Shown here: one piece after another, positions 4,583 to 16,144 of the stretch
How positions within the stretch are numbered: the first letter of the stretch is position 1
Layout of the letters: every line of letters starts with the position of its first letter
DNA from: an uncultured Ruminococcus sp.
GTDB lineage: Bacteria; Bacillota; Clostridia; Oscillospirales; Ruminococcaceae
Assembly (NCBI GenBank): GCA_902796865.1
Contig: CADBQZ010000003.1
Span: forward strand, 1 to 16,144
Direction: 5' to 3'
DNA length: 16,144 nucleotides
Notes under the pieces: generated by a model
Databases searched by the model: none
What the model was told of the DNA's origin: nothing
The model's input: the letters and a program-made list of their open reading frames with translations, nothing else
Position numbers and translations under genes: made by a program

Positions 4583-4616
4583 AAAAGCAGGGTGAGCAAA
4601 TACTCACCCTGCTTTT
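4583..4616. terminator. Bidirectional hairpin terminator between htpG and mazF
   Basis: A perfect 14-bp stem (4583-4596 with 4603-4616) with a 6-base loop starts with AAAA and ends with TTTT, so each strand has a U-run at the 3' side of a GC-rich helix. It lies 25 bp past the htpG stop and touches the last base of the convergent mazF stop codon. It can therefore end transcripts from both sides. Confidence 0.9.
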
Positions 4617-4960
4617 CAGTGCAGTCCAAAACTTATCGAAAGAGCATTGTCAACTCTGTCCATAGCGCCGTTATCGAGTGCTCCCATTCTCTCTTTTAAA
4701 CGCTTTTTATCGATAGTCCTTACCTGTTCCAATAAAACTATACTGTCCTTTGACAATCCGCAGCCGGCGGCGCTAAGCTCGATATGTGTCGGAAGCTTAG
4801 TCTTTTCACGCTGGCTTGTGATAGCAGCTGCTATCACTGTGGGGCTGTGGCGGTTTCCCACGTCGTTTTGAACGATAAGTACCGGTCTTACTCCGCCCTG
4901 CTCCGAACCCACAACAGGGCTTAGATCGGCATAATAGATCTCTCCTCTTTTAACAGACAT
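4616..4960 (-). CDS. mazF: MazF/EndoA-type mRNA interferase, no adjacent antitoxin
   Basis: This 114-residue protein belongs to the MazF/PemK family of sequence-specific endoribonucleases, which cleave mRNA and are neutralised by a MazE-type antitoxin. The match to Bacillus EndoA (NdoA) is close: [44 protein letters not shown] and [10 protein letters not shown]. The catalytic Arg25 (in GVRPV) and Thr48 (in AAITSQ) are both present, so the toxin should be active. The start is supported by a GGAG at 4973-4970. In Bacillus the antitoxin gene sits directly upstream; here the 245 bp before mazF hold no credible antitoxin, and the next gene is a divergent ATPase. Either the antitoxin is encoded elsewhere or the enzyme is controlled differently. 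Confidence 0.94.
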
Positions 4961-7830: not shown

Positions 7831-7872
7831 ATATTATCAAAGGCACATTTAGTCAATTCCTTTTCGCATATA

Positions 7873-7901
7873 TTGCATTTAGTACAAAAATGTGATATAA
7901 T
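7873..7901 (+). promoter_or_regulatory. Promoter of the cbiK-ABC-cobO operon
   Basis: TTGCAT (7873-7878), a 17-base spacer and a perfect TATAAT (7896-7901) preceded by TG-A (extended -10) predict a start near 7908. The -10 is embedded in the 10-bp palindrome ATAATATTAT (7897-7906), a possible repressor site. The resulting leader of about 59 nt is too short for a cobalamin riboswitch. Confidence 0.7.
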
Positions 7902-7909
7902 ATTATTTG

Positions 7910-7946
7910 TGCCGATGAAAAACGGCATGATAAGGATAATAAAAAT
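7910..7946 (+). other. Operon leader: small hairpin and GATAAT-like repeats
   Basis: A 5-bp stem (TGCCG 7910-7914 with CGGCA 7923-7927, 8-base loop) sits at the predicted transcript 5' end. It is followed by the tandem hexamers GATAAG, GATAAT and AAAAAT (7929-7946), which loosely resemble the old hexamer description of Fur sites. Neither is strong. They are recorded because iron or haem regulation would suit the operon. Confidence 0.2.
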
Positions 7947-7966
7947 ACTGAAAGGAAGTATAAAAA

Positions 7967-8983
7967 ATGAAAAAAATGATAACAGCAATACTTTGTTTAT
8001 CACTCATGACATCGGTTTTCGCAGCAGGCTGCGGAAAAGACGATTCTTCAAAAGAAAGCAGCAGTCAGTCTTCTTCACAGGCTGAAAGCTCATCGGCTGC
8101 TGAAGAATCATCACAGGCTGAAACTGAGGCTGAAGCTGCTGTTGAAGAAGAAGAAGAGGATACAGGTGATGCTTCACTCGACAATATACGCAATCAGGAC
8201 AATATAGGCGACAAAGAGCTTCTTGTTGTAAGCTTCGGAACAAGCTTTAACGACAGCAGAAGACTTACTATCGGTGCTATCGAAGACTCACTTGAAAAAG
8301 CTTTACCTGATATGGCAGTAAGAAGAGGATTTACTTCAAATATAATCATAAACCACATTTATAAGCGTGACGGCGTTGTTATCGACGATGTGGACGATGC
8401 GCTCAAAAGAGCAGTATCTAACGGCGTAAAGGAACTTGTTGTACAGCCTACTCACCTAATGAACGGACTTGAATACAACGAACTTGTAGACAAGGTAGGC
8501 GAATATGCTGATGCTTTTGAAAGCGTTAAATTCGGCAAGCCGCTCCTTACAAGTGATGATGACTTTGCCCGTGTGGAAAAAGCAATAACCGACTGGACAA
8601 AGGAATATGACGACGGTGAGACCGCTATATGCTTTATGGGTCACGGCACAGAAGCAGATTCTAACTCAGTATATCAGAAAATGCAGGATCTTCTCACAAA
8701 GGATGGCTTTAAGAACTATTTTGTAGGAACAGTTGAAGCAGAACCTTCTATAGACGACCTTCTTGCTGCCGTAAAGAAAGGCGGATACAAGAGAGTAGTA
8801 TTAGAGCCTCTCATGGTAGTTGCAGGCGACCATGCAAACAATGATATGGCAGGCGATGAAGAAGATTCATGGAAGTCAAAATTTGAAGCCGAAGGTCTTA
8901 AAGTCGAATGCCTTTTAAGAGGTCTTGGCGAAAACGAGGAAATAAGACAGATCTACGCAGAACACGCAAAGGCTGCCGAATAA
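7967..8983 (+). CDS. cbiK: Surface lipoprotein CbiK-type anaerobic cobaltochelatase
   Basis: CbiK enzymes insert Co2+ (or Fe2+) into sirohydrochlorin-type tetrapyrroles without ATP. This 338-residue protein starts with a lipoprotein signal peptide whose lipobox ends at Cys22 (FAAGC). A Ser/Glu-rich tether of about 45 residues follows, then a full CbiK domain from about residue 83: VVSFGTSFNDSR, VQPTH (159-163), FMGHGTEA, VGTVEAEPS and VVAGDHANNDMAGDEEDSW. His226, Glu257 and His289 match the metal-ligand triad known from Desulfovibrio CbiKP in identity and approximate spacing, so activity is likely retained. The protein should sit outside the membrane, tied to it by lipid, whereas typical biosynthetic CbiK is cytoplasmic. 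It is the first gene of the operon, with ribosome site AAAGGAAG. Its substrate could be a scavenged metal-free tetrapyrrole, or it could remove iron from haem. Confidence 0.93.
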   Translation: MKKMITAILCLSLMTSVFAAGCGKDDSSKESSSQSSSQAESSSAAEESSQAETEAEAAVEEEEEDTGDASLDNIRNQDNIGDKELLVVSFGTSFNDSRRLTIGAIEDSLEKALPDMAVRRGFTSNIIINHIYKRDGVVIDDVDDALKRAVSNGVKELVVQPTHLMNGLEYNELVDKVGEYADAFESVKFGKPLLTSDDDFARVEKAITDWTKEYDDGETAICFMGHGTEADSNSVYQKMQDLLTKDGFKNYFVGTVEAEPSIDDLLAAVKKGGYKRVVLEPLMVVAGDHANNDMAGDEEDSWKSKFEAEGLKVECLLRGLGENEEIRQIYAEHAKAAE

Positions 8984-8995
8984 TAAGGAGAAAAC

Positions 8996-9913
8996 ATGAA
9001 AATTAAAAGAACAATATTAGCAGTATTTTTATCAGCTGCACTTTTAAGCTCTCTGTCCGGCTGCGGCAGCAGTGATACGTCTTCGTCTGCTGACAGCAGC
9101 AGTGCACAGACACAGGCTGAAACACAGCCCGAAACTCAGGAGGAAACTCAGCACGAGACTGTTCCTCCCGAGGAGATAGGCTTTGATGGAATGACACCTG
9201 TCACGGCAGATGAGCTTTCCGACGGAGAATATCCTATAACCGTCGATTCAAGTTCCTCAATGTTCAAAATAACTGAATGTACACTTGCCGTATCAAACGG
9301 AAGCATGACTGCTAAGATGACTATGAGCGGCAAGGGATATGAGTATCTTTATATGGGTACTGAAGAAGCAGCAGCTTCAGCTGATGAAAATGACTTCATA
9401 AAATATGAAGAAAACGCTGACGGCGCTCAAGTATTCACTGTCCCGGTAGAAGCTCTCAACAAAGAGATAGACTGTGCGGCATTCAGCAAGAAAAAACAGC
9501 AGTGGTATGGAAGAACTCTTGTTTTCCGTGCCGATTCACTGCCCGATGATGCAGGATTTTCAAATAACGGAACTTCCGCTTCCGAGCTTGGACTTGAAGA
9601 CGGCGAATATACTGCCGATGTAAAGCTTGAAGGCGGTTCAGGAAGAGCCTCTGTATCGTCTCCGGCAAAGCTTACCGTAAAAGACGGCAATGTTACTGCG
9701 AAAATAATCTGGAGCAGCAATAAGTATGATTATATGATAGTAGGCGGCGAAAAGTATCTTCCTGTAAGCACCGATGAAAACTCCGTATTCGAGATACCGG
9801 TAAGCGGATTTGATTTCATGATGCCTGTAAAGGCAGATACTACCGCAATGAGTACTCCTCATGAGATCGAATATACACTTTATTTTGATTCTGCCTCAAT
9901 AGAAAAGAAATGA
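8996..9913 (+). CDS. Lipoprotein with two related beta-rich (NEAT-like?) domains
   Basis: The 305-residue product has a lipobox LSGC (Cys23), then a tether containing four Q-x-E-T tetrapeptides (residues 40-55). Two similar domains of about 105 residues follow (roughly 74-181 and 199-303). Both open with DGEY, carry a K-(M/I)-x-(M/W)-S...Y-(E/D)-Y core, an F-(T/E)-(V/I)-PV strand, and end in a hydrophobic beta strand (RTLVF; EYTLYF). The layout resembles haem-binding NEAT (iron-transport-associated) domains, but I cannot confirm that by eye. The second domain has the striking motif DTTAMSTPHEIEYTLYFDS. An AGGAG lies 5 bases before the ATG, 12 bp after cbiK. It probably binds or hands over the substrate of the neighbouring ABC importer at the cell surface. 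Ligand unknown. Confidence 0.85.
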   Translation: MKIKRTILAVFLSAALLSSLSGCGSSDTSSSADSSSAQTQAETQPETQEETQHETVPPEEIGFDGMTPVTADELSDGEYPITVDSSSSMFKITECTLAVSNGSMTAKMTMSGKGYEYLYMGTEEAAASADENDFIKYEENADGAQVFTVPVEALNKEIDCAAFSKKKQQWYGRTLVFRADSLPDDAGFSNNGTSASELGLEDGEYTADVKLEGGSGRASVSSPAKLTVKDGNVTAKIIWSSNKYDYMIVGGEKYLPVSTDENSVFEIPVSGFDFMMPVKADTTAMSTPHEIEYTLYFDSASIEKK

Positions 9914-11046
9914 AAAAAGCGGTCTTGATGATTCTTTCCTGCATGATATTTATACTTTCAATATCATGCAGCGAAAGCAATACAGATATTACAGATACTC
10001 TTTTCGGACTTAAAAAGACAGGCAGCATGGAGCTTTCATATGCCAAATGCTTCACAGCAGACTTTTATGACGAAGGCTATTCACTCGTTACTATCGGTGA
10101 GCAAAAGATACTTATAGTACCGAAGGACAAGCCTGTTCCCGAAGGTACAGAAGGGTATACTGTTATACAGCAGCCGGTCGAAAACATCTATGCCGCATCA
10201 TCTTCATCAGTCGATCTGTTTGACGGTATAGGAGCGCTCGACAGTGTGACCATGACTTCGACCGATATAAAGGATTGGGCGCTGCCTGATGTTATAAACG
10301 CTCTTGAAAACGAAAAGATGACATACATCGGCAAATACCGTTCCCCGGATTTTGAATGTCTGCTTGAAAATGAATGCGGACTTGCGCTTGAAAACACAAT
10401 GATATATCATAGTCCCGAGACATATGAAAAGATAGAAGAACTAGGTATACCGGTCATTGTTGAGAACTCAAGCTATGAGGAACACCCTTTAGGCCGTATG
10501 GAATGGATAAAGCTTTACGGACTTATTTTAGACAAGCTTGACACAGCCGAAAGCTTTTTTGATGCTAAGAAAGAAATATTTGACAAAGCAGCTGATGCTG
10601 TTTCAGACGGTGATAAAAAAACCGCGGCTTTTTTCTATGTAAGCAGCAGCGGTGCTATAAATATAAGAAAACCTAATGACTATATATCAAAAATGATAGA
10701 ACTTGCAGGCGGCAAATATATCTTTGATGCCGAAAGTCTCAATATACCGGAAACTGCTGTATCTACTATGAATATACAGCTCGAAAGCTTTTATAAGGCA
10801 GCAAAAGATGCTGATATACTTATATACAACAGTACAGTTGACGGTGAGCTTGACAGCATCAGTGATCTTATCGAAAAAAACAGTATATTTGCCGATCTCA
10901 AAGCCGTAAAAGAAGGAAATGTATGGTGCACACGCCAGAATGTTTTTCAGCAGACCACAGGTGCTGCCGAAATGATGACAGACCTTCACAGTATAATAAA
11001 CGGTGATACAGATAAGGAACTTAATTTTTTGAACAGGTTAAACTGA
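9910..11046 (+). CDS. ABC importer substrate-binding lipoprotein, iron-complex/corrinoid class
   Basis: This is the extracytoplasmic receptor of a type II ABC importer (BtuF/FepB/FhuD class, Peripla_BP_2 fold). It has 378 residues, with a hydrophobic signal segment and a likely lipidation site at Cys20 (ILSISC, a slightly weak lipobox). Family landmarks are IYAASSSSVDLFDGIGAL near residue 93, the inter-lobe region HPLGRMEWIK (192-201) and the C-terminal NVWCTRQNVFQQTTG. The ATG overlaps the previous stop (ATGA at 9910-9913) and lacks a good ribosome site, so it is probably translated by coupling. This class carries Fe-siderophores, haem or cobalamin. The operon context, with a chelatase and an adenosyltransferase, favours a tetrapyrrole, but specificity is not readable from sequence. 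Confidence 0.9.
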   Translation: MKKAVLMILSCMIFILSISCSESNTDITDTLFGLKKTGSMELSYAKCFTADFYDEGYSLVTIGEQKILIVPKDKPVPEGTEGYTVIQQPVENIYAASSSSVDLFDGIGALDSVTMTSTDIKDWALPDVINALENEKMTYIGKYRSPDFECLLENECGLALENTMIYHSPETYEKIEELGIPVIVENSSYEEHPLGRMEWIKLYGLILDKLDTAESFFDAKKEIFDKAADAVSDGDKKTAAFFYVSSSGAINIRKPNDYISKMIELAGGKYIFDAESLNIPETAVSTMNIQLESFYKAAKDADILIYNSTVDGELDSISDLIEKNSIFADLKAVKEGNVWCTRQNVFQQTTGAAEMMTDLHSIINGDTDKELNFLNRLN

Positions 11047-11051
11047 AAACT

Positions 11052-12071
11052 ATGACTAAAAAAAGAGATCTCAGGATCATATTATGCTTTTTATCCCTGT
11101 TTCTTATGATGGGGATATTTTTTTTGCTGAATCTTACAAACGGCAGCAGCCATATAAGTATATCTGAAATGTTCGATATACTAACAGGCGGCGGCGATGT
11201 GACAGCCAGAAAGATAATTCTTGATATACGCCTTCCGAGAGCCGCAGCAGCACTAATGCTTGGCGGAGCGCTTTCAATATCCGGTTATCTTTTGCAGAGC
11301 TTTTTCGGCAATCCTATAGCGGGTCCGTTCGTACTTGGAATATCATCCGGTGCAAAGCTTTTTGTCGCTGCCGTTATGATATACGCCGTAAAAAGCGGCA
11401 TGGCTGTAAATTCTGCAATGCTTGCAGCTGCGGCTTTTGCAGGCTCTCTTGCAGCAGTCGGACTTATACTGCCTCTTTCGGGCAGAGTAAAAGGAATGGC
11501 ACAGCTTATAATCATAGGCATAATGATAGGGTATATATGCTCTGCTGCAACAGAACTACTTGTAAATTTTGCGGACGATTCAAACATAGTAAACCTTCAT
11601 AACTGGTCTATGGGAAGCTTTTCCGGCATAGACAAAGATGATTTGAAAATAATAGCGGCAATAACCGGAACAGGTACTATATCAGCCTTTCTTCTTTCAA
11701 AGCCTATGGGAGCATATCTTCACGGCGAAGGATATGCTTCGAGTGTCGGCGTGAACATAAAGCTTTTCAGAGTGCTTCTGATGCTGCTTGCAAGTCTTCT
11801 TGCAGCGTGTGTCACGGCTTTTGCAGGTCCCGTTTCATTTGTCGGGGTAGCAGTGCCGCACCTTATCAAAGGTTTTTTCGGAACATCAAGACCTGTTATC
11901 ATAGTACCGGCAGTTTTTATCGGCGGAAGCACATTTTGTCTTTTCTGCGATCTTGCGGCACGAATGCTTTTTTCACCGCTTGAATTAAGTATAAGCACTG
12001 TTACCGCTATTCTGGGCGCACCCGTGGTAATAATCGTTATGATAAAGCGCAAAAGAAACGGAGGCTTATAA
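11052..12071 (+). CDS. FecCD/BtuC-family ABC importer permease
   Basis: This polytopic membrane subunit forms the channel of a type II importer, presumably as a homodimer. The 339 residues contain many hydrophobic helices and family landmarks: RLPRAAAALMLGGALSISG (60-78), FFGNPIAGPFVLGISSGA (84-101), GPVSFVGVAVPHLIKGFFG and the closing LELSISTVTAILGAP. It starts 5 bases after the receptor gene with only a weak ribosome site, suggesting termination-reinitiation. Its partners are the upstream receptor and downstream ATPase. The cargo is an iron complex, haem or corrinoid by family. Confidence 0.94.
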   Translation: MTKKRDLRIILCFLSLFLMMGIFFLLNLTNGSSHISISEMFDILTGGGDVTARKIILDIRLPRAAAALMLGGALSISGYLLQSFFGNPIAGPFVLGISSGAKLFVAAVMIYAVKSGMAVNSAMLAAAAFAGSLAAVGLILPLSGRVKGMAQLIIIGIMIGYICSAATELLVNFADDSNIVNLHNWSMGSFSGIDKDDLKIIAAITGTGTISAFLLSKPMGAYLHGEGYASSVGVNIKLFRVLLMLLASLLAACVTAFAGPVSFVGVAVPHLIKGFFGTSRPVIIVPAVFIGGSTFCLFCDLAARMLFSPLELSISTVTAILGAPVVIIVMIKRKRNGGL

Positions 12072-12073
12072 AT

Positions 12074-12841
12074 ATGGCTGTTCTTTCTTTAAAAGAGCTT
12101 TCCTGCGGATATGGAAAAAAAGTCATCGTAAAAGGTATAGAGCTTGAAGCAGATGCCGGTGAAATGATATGTCTTATAGGACAAAACGGCTCGGGCAAAT
12201 CAACTGTCCTGAAAACTATTGCCTCCATGATACCGCCTATAAGCGGCAGCATACTGATAGACGGAAAAAACAGATCAGATATAAGCAGGAATGAAGCTGC
12301 AAGGATAATGTCGGTACTGTTTACAGAAAGAGTGAACTATGACCGTATGACCTGCTTTGAAGCAGTCTCCGCCGGACGTTATCCTTATACAGGCCGACTT
12401 GGGATACTGTCTGACGATGACAAAAGGATAGTAAATGATGCTATGAAGCTTACAAAAACGTATGAGCTAAGAGACAGCGACATACGATTTATAAGCGACG
12501 GTCAGCGCCAGCTAGTTATGCTCGCAAGAGCCATAGCGCAGCAGCCGAGGATAATGATCCTTGACGAGCCGTCATCTTTTCTTGATATAAATAATAAGCT
12601 AAGACTTCTTGGCATATTAAAAAAGCTTACAGCCACAAAAAATATGACCGTAATAATGTCGCTGCACGAATTAGAGCTTGCAAAACAGTTTGCGGACAGG
12701 CTTATCTGTATAAAAAACGGAGCACCGGATAAAACAGGTACTCCCGATGAGATATTATCAGACGGATATATAAAAGAGCTTTTTGATATTGACGATGAGT
12801 ACACATACGAAATATCCGATATTCGGCAGGTGATAGAATGA
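12074..12841 (+). CDS. ABC importer ATPase (FecE/BtuD family) with variant motifs
   Basis: This 255-residue cytoplasmic subunit drives the importer. Walker A is GQNGSGKST (36-44), Walker B is IMILDEPS (160-167) and the switch histidine is His198 (SLHEL). Two sites are unusual. The signature is ISDGQRQ (140-146) rather than LSGGQ. The Q-loop region reads VLFTERV (81-87), with no obvious glutamine. I recall similar TER and SDGQ motifs in a clostridial subgroup, so this may be a lineage feature rather than decay. GGAGG (12060-12064) lies inside the end of the permease gene, 9 bases before the ATG. Only two bases separate the two genes. Confidence 0.94.
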   Translation: MAVLSLKELSCGYGKKVIVKGIELEADAGEMICLIGQNGSGKSTVLKTIASMIPPISGSILIDGKNRSDISRNEAARIMSVLFTERVNYDRMTCFEAVSAGRYPYTGRLGILSDDDKRIVNDAMKLTKTYELRDSDIRFISDGQRQLVMLARAIAQQPRIMILDEPSSFLDINNKLRLLGILKKLTATKNMTVIMSLHELELAKQFADRLICIKNGAPDKTGTPDEILSDGYIKELFDIDDEYTYEISDIRQVIE

Positions 12842-13356
12842 TACATATATACAGCGGAAGCGGCAAAGGAAAAACCACCGCAGCAGCAGGACTTGCTGTA
12901 AGAGCAGCCGGAGCAGGACTTAAAGTAATGTTTTATCAGTTTTTAAAAAACGGCAGCTCATCTGAGATAAAGATACTCGAAAGCATAGAAGGCATAACCG
13001 TTCGTCCATGCAGATGCTGTAATAAATTCACAAAGAAAATGACTGTCTCTGAAAAAGAAAAGGTAAAAGCCGAACATAATAAGATGCTGAAAGAAATACA
13101 GGATACGATAGAATGCGCTGATGCTGATATGATAGTTGCAGACGAGCTTATCGGCGCTTACAATAATGATATGCTTAACAAAGAATACGCCTTAAAGATA
13201 ATAAAAAAAGCATATGACAAAAATATAGAATTTGTTATGACCGGCAGAGAACCGCCTGATATTTTCTGTGAATTTGCCGATTATCACAGCGAGATAAAAG
13301 CCTTAAAGCACCCATATAAAAACGGAATAGCTGCTAGACTTGGCATAGAATACTGA
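12838..13356 (+). CDS. cobO: CobA/CobO-like ATP:corrinoid adenosyltransferase
   Basis: CobA/CobO/BtuR enzymes transfer the 5'-deoxyadenosyl group from ATP to Co(I) corrinoids. This 172-residue cytoplasmic protein, slightly shorter than the about 196-residue Salmonella CobA, has the family P-loop GSGKGKTTAAAG (7-18). It also has QFLK (34-37), ADELIGAYN (101-109), VMTGREPPD (133-141) and the closing ALKHPYKNGIAARLGIEY (155-172). In Salmonella CobA a Phe-Thr-Trp motif sits over the corrinoid; the matching place here seems to be KFTKK (63-67), keeping Phe64 but with Lys for Trp. A Cys cluster (C58, C60, C61) precedes it. The ATG overlaps the ATPase stop by 4 bases (ATGA). As last gene of the operon it would act on the imported ligand. 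A different but related role is possible. Confidence 0.9.
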   Translation: MIHIYSGSGKGKTTAAAGLAVRAAGAGLKVMFYQFLKNGSSSEIKILESIEGITVRPCRCCNKFTKKMTVSEKEKVKAEHNKMLKEIQDTIECADADMIVADELIGAYNNDMLNKEYALKIIKKAYDKNIEFVMTGREPPDIFCEFADYHSEIKALKHPYKNGIAARLGIEY

Positions 13357-13359
13357 ATA

Positions 13360-13397
13360 GATCCCCATAAAGCATTTTGTTTTGCTTTATGGGGATC
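13360..13397 (+). terminator. Terminator of the cbiK-cobO operon
   Basis: A perfect 15-bp stem (13360-13374 with 13383-13397) with an 8-base T-rich loop starts three bases after the cobO stop and is followed by GTTTCTTT. The convergent CAP-domain gene stops 11 bp further on, so the helix could also end that transcript. The minus side lacks a U-run. Confidence 0.88.
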
Positions 13398-13407
13398 GTT
13401 TCTTTGG

Positions 13408-14520
13408 TTAAGACTTCAAAAATCTCTTTTTAAGTATCAGAAGGTCAAAAACATTTATTTTATTGTCTTTATTCATGTCCTTTATTTTATCTGCATCAAA
13501 GCTTTTTTTGATAAGGAAATTAACAGTCTCTTTTATATCACTTGATGAAATACTTTCTTCCGGTTTAAGATCAATAAAATCTACCGTATATGATACCGGA
13601 GAAGAAAGCCCTTCTATCGTAACATCAAAGCTGTCTCCTGCTGCATAAGTGATATTATCCGGACGGAAAATTATACAGCCCTGCTGACCATAGTATTCGT
13701 TATTGACGTTGAAATATCCGTCTGCACTGCTGTTAGAAAACACCCATTTCTGACTGTCCTTTTTTCTTGTCAATGTAACTTTTACCGCCGAAGCATTAAC
13801 AGAATTTCCCATTGATATGCTCCAAGGATCTTTTTTATCAAAAAACTCTACAGGCATAGTCTGTGCCGGCCAGCATACACCATAATTCTCAGTGTATCCA
13901 AAGGTATTATCAAAAGCGTACATCGCAGTAAAATCTGAAACCATTCCGAAGCCGGTCTGTTTCATCGAAGGATTAAGGCACCAGCGCCTATGTCCGACAC
14001 GATCTATATTATAGCTGTCTTCATCTCTTATCCAGCCATACAATACCGCATCAATCGGTGAATAATAACCCCAGCCAAGATTAGAACTTGAAGCTCCCTC
14101 ATAGCCTTTATTATAAAGCTCATCTGACATATCCGCCGGCTTTGACGGCATATGCGAAAGCTGACCATTGACCGCATCTACAAGAGCGCCTGTCTGCGCC
14201 AGATCATTATAATTATCCGAGAGAGAAACTTCATCTATGCCTGCAATATATCTTACTATATTGAGCGCATTCAGCGCCGACTGTAATGTACTGTCACTTA
14301 ATTTTCCGGCACTGTACGGAGCAGTCTTATAATTCGGCTGTTCATCATAAGAAGCTGATGTGTCGAACGGATGTGTGTCGATATAATCAATTATTTCAGC
14401 CTTTGTTCGGCTTTGGACATTGATACCTGTCGAAGCCGCTTCTGTTGTAAATGCAAAAGAAGAAGATACTAGAGCCGCTGATGTCATAAAAATAGCAAAT
14501 GACTTGAAAATTTTTTTCAT
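13408..14520 (-). CDS. Secreted CAP/SCP-domain protein with short dockerin-like tail
   Basis: The 370-residue product has a Sec signal peptide (residues 1 to about 28), then a CAP (SCP/PR-1-like) domain at about 80-225. Likely pocket residues are His123 (LSHMP), Glu141 (YEGASSSNLGW), Glu167 and His177 (GHRRWCLNP). A beta-rich segment (about 235-315) follows. The last 45 residues resemble the second half of a type I dockerin. One complete Ca2+-binding loop is visible, D348-M-N-K-D-N-K-I-N-V-F-D359, followed by the LLILKKRFL helix; the first half has lost its loop residues. Bacterial CAP proteins are mostly uncharacterised, and the tail suggests attachment to a cohesin-bearing surface or cellulosome-like complex. 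GGGGGA lies 9 bases before the ATG. The gene lies downstream of the GH5 gene but has its own promoter. Confidence 0.9.
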   Translation of the reverse strand: MKKIFKSFAIFMTSAALVSSSFAFTTEAASTGINVQSRTKAEIIDYIDTHPFDTSASYDEQPNYKTAPYSAGKLSDSTLQSALNALNIVRYIAGIDEVSLSDNYNDLAQTGALVDAVNGQLSHMPSKPADMSDELYNKGYEGASSSNLGWGYYSPIDAVLYGWIRDEDSYNIDRVGHRRWCLNPSMKQTGFGMVSDFTAMYAFDNTFGYTENYGVCWPAQTMPVEFFDKKDPWSISMGNSVNASAVKVTLTRKKDSQKWVFSNSSADGYFNVNNEYYGQQGCIIFRPDNITYAAGDSFDVTIEGLSSPVSYTVDFIDLKPEESISSSDIKETVNFLIKKSFDADKIKDMNKDNKINVFDLLILKKRFLKS

Positions 14521-14853: not shown

Positions 14854-16144
14854 TTAGCCTGTATATTTCTTCAAGGCTTTTACTTTTCCGACAAGAAATT
14901 CATTAAGCATTATAAGATCTGAAACATTAACAGAGCTGTCACCATTAACATTTGCCGGTGAATCAATATCCATAGCTACATCTGAAGGAGAAGAAAGAGC
15001 TCTTTTAAGCTGTAAGGAATCGAAAACATTGAGCTTCTTATCGCCGTTCATATCGCCGACTATATAATCATTTTCCTCCGGATCGGACGGTTTGATCTCA
15101 GGATCCTTAGGATCAGTCGAACCATCGGAATCGAGATTGCTTCCTTCTGATGAAGCATAATTAGAATAATAATCCGATGTTGATATACCGTTTACACCAA
15201 GCGGTGTCTGATGGTCAAGTCCTATATACTTTCCGCTCTTGCTTGTCTGCCAGAGTGAAGGTTCAAAGAGATCATACTTTTCCGCATCCCACTCGGTAAC
15301 CGTACCGGTAGAAGGGTTGTACTGAATGCTCTTCCAAAGTCCACCTGTATCGCCAGAGTCATCATTCAGGCACCAGAATGTATGGTTTATATGATGCTTT
15401 ATCATATAATCACGGATAAGCCTCATCCACTTTTCATTATCTCCGCCGTCGAGCTTTCCGCCCCACTCGCCTATAAGAAGCGGTGCTATATCCTTATCAT
15501 TTACATATGCCCATGTATCATACCAGTAATCATCAAGAAGTGTCTGTTCGGTAAAGTCTTTATGGAACCATGTCTGATCGCTTACGATAGGACCATAATC
15601 GTGCGGTGAGTAAATTATCTGGCTTGTACCAGCCTTAGGTTCTACCGGATAATCCTTTACACCTCTGAGGTTTCCGCCCCACCATGCGCCGTGTCCCTGA
15701 TAGCCTTCTACGCCCTCGATAAGTATAAGAGCATTAGGGTTCTTTGCAAGTATTGCATCTGCACAGTCTTCAGCTGCCTTTTTCCAGTTGTTCGGAGCAT
15801 CTGAGTTGTCCCATATAGCATCGACCGGTGCACCGCCGTATGTGCTGTGCGGTTCATTTTTAAGGTCATATCCTATCAGTGTATCGTCGTTTTTATAGTG
15901 ATCTGCTGTCCATGCAAGAGTTTCCTGCCAAACCTTAGTAGTTACTTCGACTGTATCACCGTCATTTGCTGTAAAGCTTTTACCGTACCATATGCCGTAG
16001 TTGTGTCCCGAATTATTGGACTCAGGGCTGTGGATGTCAATAAATACCTTTACTCCGTTTTCCTTGCACTTTTTGAGCAGGACATCAAACACCTGCATAC
16101 TGTTCATTACAGAACCGTCCGGATTGATAAGATCAATATTAAAA
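14854..16144 (-). CDS. GH5 endoglucanase-like enzyme with C-terminal dockerin, N-terminus outside window
   Basis: Family 5 glycoside hydrolases cleave beta-1,4-glucans or mannans with retention. The frame is open to the window edge (about 429 residues), so the signal peptide and first strands of the barrel are missing; the Met at 16107 is internal. Visible landmarks are VKVFIDIHSPES, the acid/base Glu in GYDLKNEPHS (codon 15855-15853), IYSPHDYGP, the nucleophile Glu in LIGEWGG (codon 15468-15466) and FWCLNDDSGDTGG. After a Ser/Asp/Pro-rich linker comes a type I dockerin (about 14878-15063) with two Ca2+ loops, D-M-N-G-D-K-K-L-N-V-F-D and N-V-N-G-D-S-S-V-N-V-S-D. The second loop starts with Asn. 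Secretion and binding to a cohesin scaffold are expected. Cellulase activity is the likeliest, but the subfamily is not certain. Confidence 0.95.
   Translation of the reverse strand, partial: FNIDLINPDGSVMNSMQVFDVLLKKCKENGVKVFIDIHSPESNNSGHNYGIWYGKSFTANDGDTVEVTTKVWQETLAWTADHYKNDDTLIGYDLKNEPHSTYGGAPVDAIWDNSDAPNNWKKAAEDCADAILAKNPNALILIEGVEGYQGHGAWWGGNLRGVKDYPVEPKAGTSQIIYSPHDYGPIVSDQTWFHKDFTEQTLLDDYWYDTWAYVNDKDIAPLLIGEWGGKLDGGDNEKWMRLIRDYMIKHHINHTFWCLNDDSGDTGGLWKSIQYNPSTGTVTEWDAEKYDLFEPSLWQTSKSGKYIGLDHQTPLGVNGISTSDYYSNYASSEGSNLDSDGSTDPKDPEIKPSDPEENDYIVGDMNGDKKLNVFDSLQLKRALSSPSDVAMDIDSPANVNGDSSVNVSDLIMLNEFLVGKVKALKKYTG

What the first reader, a model, noticed from the sequence alone, without database searches (positions are those of the whole stretch)
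7873..13397. Six-gene operon linking a surface chelatase, an ABC importer and an adenosyltransferase
Seen: six genes with gaps of 12 bp or less, or 4-bp overlaps, between one promoter and one terminator. They encode a lipoprotein CbiK, a two-domain lipoprotein, an iron-complex/corrinoid-class receptor, permease and ATPase, and a CobA-like enzyme. Known: CbiK acts in the cytoplasm in anaerobic B12 synthesis, and CobA adenosylates corrinoids. Inference: this is a tetrapyrrole acquisition route in which metal is inserted or removed outside the cell, the product imported and then adenosylated. It could salvage incomplete corrinoids, or extract iron or cobalt from tetrapyrroles. I cannot say whether it has been described.
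Basis: partly seen in the sequence, partly recalled or inferred. Interest (0 to 1): 0.8.

Follow-up and report, generated by a model that had tools for sequence, protein, structure and literature searches.

The report
Surface cobalt-chelatase importer for B12 precursors
A gut bacterium carries an operon that probably loads cobalt into a scavenged ring molecule on the outside of the cell and imports it to make vitamin B12; this could explain how bacteria that cannot build the ring themselves may still make the vitamin.

Summary
The operon is real: six + strand genes, 7967-13356, gaps of 12 bp or less, closed by a strong terminator. It encodes a lipoprotein CbiK, a lipoprotein with NEAT fold, a binding protein, a BtuC-like permease, an ATPase and a CobA adenosyltransferase. 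The first five are a conserved module: complete and in order at 64 of 80 named loci, 12 more cut by contig ends. CobA is at none of the 80. The module belongs to B12 metabolism: cobalamin genes lie in the flank at 45 to 49 of 80 loci, and a cobalamin riboswitch lies upstream at 37 of 38 hand-picked relatives (not in the window). Module genomes often lack HemC (20 of 33, against 10 of 65 with cytosolic CbiK only); 19 of those 20 show no second CbiK or CbiX. Best reading: cobalt is inserted outside into a sirohydrochlorin-type ring, which is imported and made into B12. Substrate and chemistry are inferred. Against a simple reading: HemC is present in 13 of 33, CbiL is missing in 11 of 19, the sample outside the home order is not significant, and the binding protein's nearest folds are haem and siderophore binders. 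Novelty: new variant of a known kind.

The parts
7967..8983 (+). exported (lipoprotein) CbiK-type cobaltochelatase, 338 aa; His 226, Glu 257 and His 289 aligned with S. enterica CbiK (their roles as metal/catalytic residues are recalled)
8996..9913 (+). lipoprotein with two NEAT-type domains (residues ~76-180 and ~198-303); the second matches NEAT structures, the first only in two-domain matches
9910..11046 (+). Peripla_BP_2 substrate-binding protein, probable lipoprotein; nearest folds are haem and siderophore binders, BtuF further down
11052..12071 (+). FecCD-family permease, best NCBIfam match BtuC (188.9 bits, below its cut-off 334)
12074..12841 (+). ABC ATPase, 255 aa; lacks the C-terminal extension that many relatives have; best NCBIfam match FecE (191.2), corrinoid ATPase second (174.6)
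12838..13356 (+). CobA/BtuR-type corrinoid adenosyltransferase; the only PF02572 match found in this genome
13360..13397 (+). intrinsic terminator, 15 bp stem
7831..7966 (+). 136 nt upstream region; no cobalamin riboswitch found, unlike the relatives tested

Best explanation
The first five genes are a B12-precursor import module. The surface CbiK inserts cobalt into a sirohydrochlorin-type ring outside the membrane; the NEAT lipoprotein and the binding protein hold and hand over the ring; the pump imports it; cytoplasmic cbi genes (cbiD, F, G, H, J and an E/T-type gene on contig C260 of this genome) convert it to a corrin, and CobA adenosylates it. In most carriers of the home order the ring cannot be made at home, so it must be scavenged. 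Shown: genes, order, riboswitches in relatives, cob-cluster linkage, pathway gaps, retained residues, NEAT fold. Inferred: that CbiK is active at the surface, that cobalt is the metal, which ring is imported, and the hand-over.
For: Five-gene order in 64 of 80 named loci, 12 more cut off by contig ends. Cob/cbi genes in the flank of 49 of 80 (any profile match over 40 bits), 45 of 80 by a stricter count and 41 with two or more cob families; other species have a cytosolic cbiK in the same slot. RF00174 riboswitch upstream on the same strand in 37 of 38 hand-picked module loci (8/8, 8/8, 9/10, 12/12). In two relatives tested the ATPase's best hit is a corrinoid ATPase through its C-terminal extension (233.8 and 232.5 bits, next 198.7 and 197.7), in one the permease's is BtuC (225 against 178). 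HemC missing in 20 of 33 NEAT-linked exported-CbiK genomes against 10 of 65 cytosolic-only (Fisher p 1.4e-5; stratified by family p 3.9e-4, five informative families). Of 19 exported-CbiK genomes of the order, CbiC in 19, HemC in 4, SUMT over cut-off in the same 4. 19 of the 20 HemC-less module genomes show no second CbiK and no CbiX. All 37 NEAT-linked CbiK rows keep both His motifs.
Against: HemC is present in 13 of 33 module genomes, and outside the home order the association is not significant (HemC absent in 4 of 13 against 4 of 28, p 0.24). Export alone does not go with HemC loss (exported without NEAT: absent in 7 of 30), and 10 cytosolic-only genomes also lack HemC. No CbiL over cut-off in 11 of 19, so Co-sirohydrochlorin could not follow the textbook route there. 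G288 has HemL-like, HemB, HemC and HemD-SUMT genes by its cob genes yet only an exported CbiK; G221 is similar (HemB, HemC, SUMT). The binding protein's top Foldseek hits are haem binders (ranks 1, 2, 4, 6), BtuF is at rank 21. The window has no riboswitch. Its own genome shows no CbiC, HemC, SUMT or CbiL, but is an 89% complete draft. Transporter scores lie below curated cut-offs. CobNST chelatases were not searched.
Confidence: 0.53

Rival explanations
1. Corrinoid uptake: the transporter is an ordinary BtuFCD for cobamides or cobinamide; the lipoprotein CbiK and NEAT protein only bind corrinoids or their breakdown products and do no chelation.
For: BtuC-like permease and, in relatives, corrinoid-ATPase-like ATPase; cobalamin riboswitches; CobA next to the pump resembles the B. 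subtilis btuFCDR arrangement (recalled); missing CbiL in 11 of 19 is no problem for it.
Against: Both His motifs kept in all 37 NEAT-linked CbiK rows; an exported CbiK is the only CbiK/CbiX seen in 19 of 20 HemC-less module genomes, and all 15 HemC-less ones among the 19 tested have CbiC; haem binders rank above BtuF for the binding protein's fold.
Confidence: 0.18
2. Haem or iron acquisition (Isd/Iht-like): NEAT captures haem, CbiK removes or exchanges iron, the pump imports haem or porphyrin.
For: NEAT fold; the best solved CbiK relative by sequence is the haem-binding FetB, 9b86 (168.2 bits, S. enterica CbiK 165.5), identified with P. gingivalis FetB/IhtB by recall, which papers place in haem/iron uptake or Mn-porphyrin formation; binding-protein fold nearest to haem binders in Foldseek, haem and siderophore binders close to tied in the second look; weak IsdE match (19.9 bits).
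Against: Neighbours are cob genes and control is by B12 riboswitches at 37 of 38 loci tested; relatives' ATPase and permease score higher with corrinoid than haem models; the residue that seems to replace the NEAT haem-tyrosine is His in 32 of 36 (equivalence inferred).
Confidence: 0.17
3. Cobaltophore: cells secrete their own sirohydrochlorin, load cobalt outside with CbiK, and re-import it to gain cobalt.
For: Eight of 13 HemC+ module genomes show no second CbiK and no CbiX; G288 has upper-pathway genes by its cob genes plus only an exported CbiK.
Against: 16 of 20 module genomes of the home order lack HemC; no export pump was looked for or seen.
Confidence: 0.1

Closest known systems
Iht (Fet) locus of Porphyromonas gingivalis: IhtB/FetB lipoprotein with IhtCDE importer
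   Same: CbiK-like surface lipoprotein with a binding protein, permease and ATPase; FetB entry 9b86 is the top solved relative of the window CbiK (its identity with IhtB is recalled)
   Different: Iht has a TonB receptor, lists no NEAT protein, and is assigned to haem/iron or Mn-porphyrin; here NEAT, and in relatives B12 riboswitches and cob clusters
BtuFCD / B. subtilis btuFCDR corrinoid uptake (recalled)
   Same: binding protein, BtuC-like permease, ATPase, adenosyltransferase at the end; cobalamin riboswitch in relatives
   Different: adds an exported cobaltochelatase and a NEAT protein; scores below family cut-offs; binding-protein fold nearer to haem binders
Desulfovibrio vulgaris periplasmic CbiK (entries 2xvx, 2xvy, 2xvz; identity recalled)
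   Same: exported CbiK; in Desulfovibrio a B12 element regulates cbiK-cbiL and btuCDF (PMC545781, passages); a rumen paper, citing the D. vulgaris CbiK study, already calls the enzyme responsible for transporting sirohydrochlorin as well as cobalt insertion (PMC12654859, passage)
   Different: no NEAT protein known to me; no scavenging module in the passages seen
Isd haem uptake (NEAT proteins, IsdE)
   Same: NEAT fold with binding protein and FecCD pump
   Different: no chelatase, iron control, haem ligand Tyr (recalled)
Tetrapyrrole precursor salvagers (Shelton et al., PMC6461909)
   Same: corrin pathway kept, first tetrapyrrole steps missing, mostly Firmicutes
   Different: that paper tests 5-aminolevulinate; the passages seen name no importer for later precursors

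Membership tests
CbiK sirohydrochlorin cobaltochelatase | CbiK domain | tested here: met
   PF06180 279 bits
CbiK sirohydrochlorin cobaltochelatase | NCBIfam equivalog score (NF047852, cut-off 400) | tested here: not met
   235.2 bits; so CbiK-like, not filed as the classical equivalog
CbiK sirohydrochlorin cobaltochelatase | two metal-site His conserved | tested here: met
   alignment to 1qgo; 37 of 37 NEAT-linked rows by motif
CbiK sirohydrochlorin cobaltochelatase | cobalt insertion activity | not testable with these tools
   needs enzyme assay
NEAT domain | fold | tested here: met
NEAT domain | Pfam curated score | tested here: not met
   30.4 against 32.8 bits; so NEAT by fold, not by the Pfam threshold
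NEAT domain | haem-binding tyrosine (YxxxY, recalled) | tested here: inconclusive
   His in 32, Tyr in 4 of 36 at the presumed position; equivalence inferred
BtuFCD corrinoid importer | binding protein, FecCD permease and ATPase together | tested here: met
BtuFCD corrinoid importer | BtuC/corrinoid-ATPase equivalog scores | tested here: not met
   below cut-offs in window and in the relatives tested
BtuFCD corrinoid importer | BtuF-like binding protein | tested here: inconclusive
   BtuF 5ysc at Foldseek rank 21, haem binders above it
BtuFCD corrinoid importer | cobalamin riboswitch | tested here: inconclusive
   not found in window; present at 37 of 38 relatives
CobA/BtuR adenosyltransferase | PF02572 domain and GxGKGKTT P-loop | tested here: met
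   169.1 bits; P-loop kept
CobA/BtuR adenosyltransferase | TIGR00708 equivalog score (167.75) | tested here: not met
   109.7 bits; a cob-cluster CobA of a relative also scores only 126.8
Tetrapyrrole precursor salvager | corrin genes present, HemC and SUMT absent | tested here: inconclusive
   own genome: cbiD/F/G/H/J/E-T-type present, HemC and SUMT not found, but CbiC and CbiL not found either; 89% complete
Iht/FetB chelatase-importer | CbiK-like lipoprotein with binding protein, permease and ATPase | tested here: met
   against the description
Iht/FetB chelatase-importer | haem or porphyrin as substrate | not testable with these tools
   needs binding assays

The most novel reading that the evidence does not exclude
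A widespread, B12-riboswitch-controlled system performs the cobalt-insertion step of vitamin B12 synthesis outside the cell: a lipoprotein chelatase metallates isobacteriochlorins (sirohydrochlorin or, in CbiL-less species, factor III) shed by neighbours, and a NEAT plus BtuCD-like importer takes up the cobalt-loaded ring. Having it lets lineages lose ring synthesis and sometimes the first corrin methylation. The P. gingivalis IhtB/FetB importer, read as haem uptake, would be a cousin and could answer the published enigma of its B12 pathway without precorrin-2 synthesis.
Probability: 0.33. Interest if true: 0.92.

Novelty: new variant of a known kind. Interest (0 to 1): 0.78.

Why it matters
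How bacteria that keep the corrin pathway but lack tetrapyrrole synthesis obtain the ring is open; Shelton et al. define the class and the passages seen name no importer. This module gives a named, testable candidate, implies that a biosynthetic chelation step can sit outside the cell, and points to exchange of metal-free B12 intermediates in gut and rumen communities. It also suggests that some genes annotated as sirohydrochlorin cobaltochelatase (names) are surface proteins of an uptake system.

Tried and rejected
Considered and rejected: that CobA is part of the conserved module (0 of 80 named loci; elsewhere in cob clusters); that the window's genome lacks corrin synthesis altogether (first suggested by missing CbiC and HemC, overturned by contig C260); that the ATPase extension in relatives is a CobA fragment (CobA profile: no hit in the 100 loci L033-L132; it follows a corrinoid ATPase model).

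Led nowhere or told little: sequence search of the PDB with the NEAT lipoprotein or its profile (nothing meaningful); binding-protein sequence search (one weak hit); independent-pairs test on the CbiK tree (one pair only, because the 37 NEAT-linked CbiK rows fall in one clade of 40 rows, SH-aLRT 96). No tandem repeats in the window. The search for CbiK with NEAT domain gave no paper; in the listings and passages I saw none that describes this module; only open-licence papers are held.

Choices that affect counts: export was called by a home-made signal-peptide rule, not a trained predictor. Genomes were classed by the loci fetched; second CbiK copies of G260, G558 and G590 were taken as cytosolic from their short reading frames, not fetched. 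For genomes outside the order, second CbiK copies were sought only with the window protein. G051, whose CbiK is cut by the contig end, was set by hand to NEAT-linked. G396 was not classified. Six same-genus genomes were dropped from the HemC count because HemC was not searched there. G033 (76% complete) was left out of the CbiL test. The 19 exported-CbiK genomes include G107, where the contig ends before any NEAT gene, and not G051 or G000. Riboswitch loci (38 of the module loci fetched) were picked by hand, mostly with the module at an operon start and sequence upstream; module loci with cbiC directly upstream were mostly not tested; in L102, L111 and L119 the first possible start of the cbiK frame lies within the riboswitch and a later start is assumed. 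P values treat genomes as independent except the family-stratified one.
Full report
What is there. Six + strand genes, 7967-13356, with gaps of at most 12 bp or 4 bp overlaps, end in a 15 bp terminator at 13360-13397. They encode a CbiK with a lipoprotein signal, a second lipoprotein, a Peripla_BP_2 protein, a FecCD permease, an ABC ATPase and a CobA-type adenosyltransferase. The window is contig C3 of a 1.77 Mb, 89% complete draft genome with 276 contigs, in which this is the only CbiK-domain match and CobA the only PF02572 match.

Conservation. Among 80 named loci fetched with the CbiK alignment (the best 80 of at least 589), CbiK, NEAT, binding protein, permease and ATPase follow in order in 64; 12 are cut off by a contig end; four deviate (L051, L076, L078, L104). 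CobA is in none of the 80. Where CobA is seen among other loci, it often lies in the cob cluster, for instance between cobQ and cbiC or cobT. So the conserved unit is five genes, and the sixth is a local addition, plausible because CobA serves the same pathway.

B12 context. Cob/cbi genes lie in the flank of 49 of 80 loci if any profile match counts, 45 of 80 by best matches over 60 bits to seven specific families, 41 with two or more families; often as cobT-cobU-cobS-cobC-cbiB-cobD-cobQ-cbiC followed by the module. Pfam confirmed representatives of CobQ, CbiC, CobU, tetrapyrrole methylase, CobT, CobS, CbiB and CbiD; the cobD label rests on a general aminotransferase match. Other species have a cytosolic cbiK at the same slot. 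Some ATPases are fused to CbiD. A cobalamin riboswitch lies upstream on the same strand in 37 of 38 hand-picked module loci: 8 of 8, 8 of 8, 9 of 10 (the miss, L124, lies at a contig start), 12 of 12. Named isolates among them include R. flavefaciens Y1 and ND2009. The window itself has none. Many relatives' ATPases carry about 110 extra residues, and the two tested match a corrinoid ATPase model through that part as best hit; one relative's permease matches BtuC best; all below curated cut-offs. The window ATPase, without the extension, matches FecE best.

Pathway gaps. In 295 genomes of the order, a CbiK relative is found in 58, CbiC in 59, HemC in 39. Of 19 genomes with exported CbiK, CbiC is present in 19, HemC in 4, SUMT over cut-off in the same 4. 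With a phylum sample of 398 genomes, a few of them shared (CbiK in 75, HemC in 232), and the loci fetched, 128 genomes were classified: exported and NEAT-linked 33 (HemC missing in 20), cytosolic only 65 (missing in 10), exported without NEAT 30 (missing in 7). Fisher p, first against second group, is 1.4e-5; in the home order 16 of 20 against 6 of 37, p 6e-6; in the rest 4 of 13 against 4 of 28, p 0.24. Stratified by family it is p 3.9e-4, from five informative families. A separate short CbiX occurs in only 4 of 53 genomes searched; together with the second CbiK places, 1 of 20 HemC-less module genomes has another CbiK or CbiX, against 5 of 13 HemC+ ones.

The window's own genome. HemC, SUMT over cut-off, CbiC and CbiL over cut-off were not found, but contig C260 carries cbiD, cbiF, cbiG, cbiH, cbiJ and a cbiE/T-type gene near its end (cbiF and cbiH by profile and order only). 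So it has the middle of the corrin pathway; the rest may be missing from the assembly. Two genus mates have the module next to cbiC or in the cob cluster, with riboswitches (L151, L152).

How it most likely works. The exported CbiK keeps its two His motifs in all 37 NEAT-linked rows, so activity at the surface is likely, and it is usually the only CbiK. With B12 control in relatives and cob linkage, the simplest reading is that it metallates a sirohydrochlorin-type ring outside, which NEAT, binding protein and pump bring in. Shown: parts, order, control in relatives, gaps. Inferred: activity, metal, ring, hand-over.

What does not fit. HemC+ carriers exist; G288 has genes for a HemL-like aminotransferase, HemB, HemC, HemD-SUMT and a CbiJ fused to an NAD_binding_7 (precorrin-2-dehydrogenase-like) domain, yet only the exported CbiK and no CbiX. 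CbiL is absent in 11 of 19 exported-CbiK genomes and in 1 of 12 cytosolic ones (p 0.0016 without the incomplete G033); either the entry point there is factor III or another enzyme methylates C20. The CbiK tree puts all 37 NEAT-linked rows in one clade with three other exported ones (SH-aLRT 96), so the trait probably arose about once and spread; this limits independent tests on that gene tree.

What is known. The P. gingivalis Iht system pairs a CbiK-like lipoprotein with an importer and is called haem/iron uptake (PMC10913741, passages); FetB is said to insert Mn into protoporphyrin (PMC13402209, passages; the primary paper was not held). Shelton et al. define tetrapyrrole precursor salvagers and note that P. 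gingivalis lacks precorrin-2 synthesis (PMC6461909, passages and section 13); the 2000 paper on the enigma of its B12 pathway was seen only as a title in a reference list. In Desulfovibrio a B12 element regulates cbiK-cbiL and btuCDF (PMC545781, passages). A rumen study describes CbiK, citing the D. vulgaris work, as both transporting sirohydrochlorin and inserting cobalt, and notes BtuFCD in the same genome (PMC12654859, passages): the nearest statement to this idea that I saw. No paper describing a CbiK-NEAT-importer module showed up in searches, which cover open-licence papers only.

Verdict. Observation confirmed, interpretation partly supported. The module is a new variant built from known parts, with an unusual implication: the cobalt step of B12 synthesis may happen outside the cell.

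Noticed in passing
P0121-P0132 except P0126: Longer CbiK homologues of 512-591 aa; the two aligned (P0124, P0132) carry two CbiK copies in tandem.
   Followed up: no
L095:11395-13992, L116:2631-5753: Importer ATPase read in frame with CbiD (Pfam-confirmed for L095); L116 and L105 also carry a Cys-rich stretch after the ATPase (domain recalled, not scanned).
   Followed up: partly
L101, L102, L109, L112: NEAT ORFs of about 1.8-2.1 kb without a separate binding-protein ORF, suggesting NEAT-binding protein fusions.
   Followed up: no
L157:17445-18635: CbiJ fused to an NAD_binding_7 (precorrin-2 dehydrogenase-like) domain in G288.
   Followed up: no
L153, L154, L155: A second module layout in the same genus: riboswitch, NEAT, binding protein, permease, ATPase, CbiK, NEAT.
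   Followed up: partly
window 4616-4960: PemK/MazF-like toxin gene on the - strand; an antitoxin was not searched for.
   Followed up: no
window 13408-14520 and 14854-16107: CAP-domain protein with a sub-threshold dockerin and a cellulase-like protein with a C-terminal dockerin-like repeat (by eye; weak CelK match), both on the - strand: cellulosome-type Ruminococcus context.
   Followed up: no
Genomes G331, G370, G436, G461, G485, G509, G531, G551, G572, G592, G610, G628 and others: Exported CbiK without NEAT, 23 of 30 HemC+, some with a FecCD permease nearby; many form a separate branch of the CbiK tree. Role unknown.
   Followed up: no
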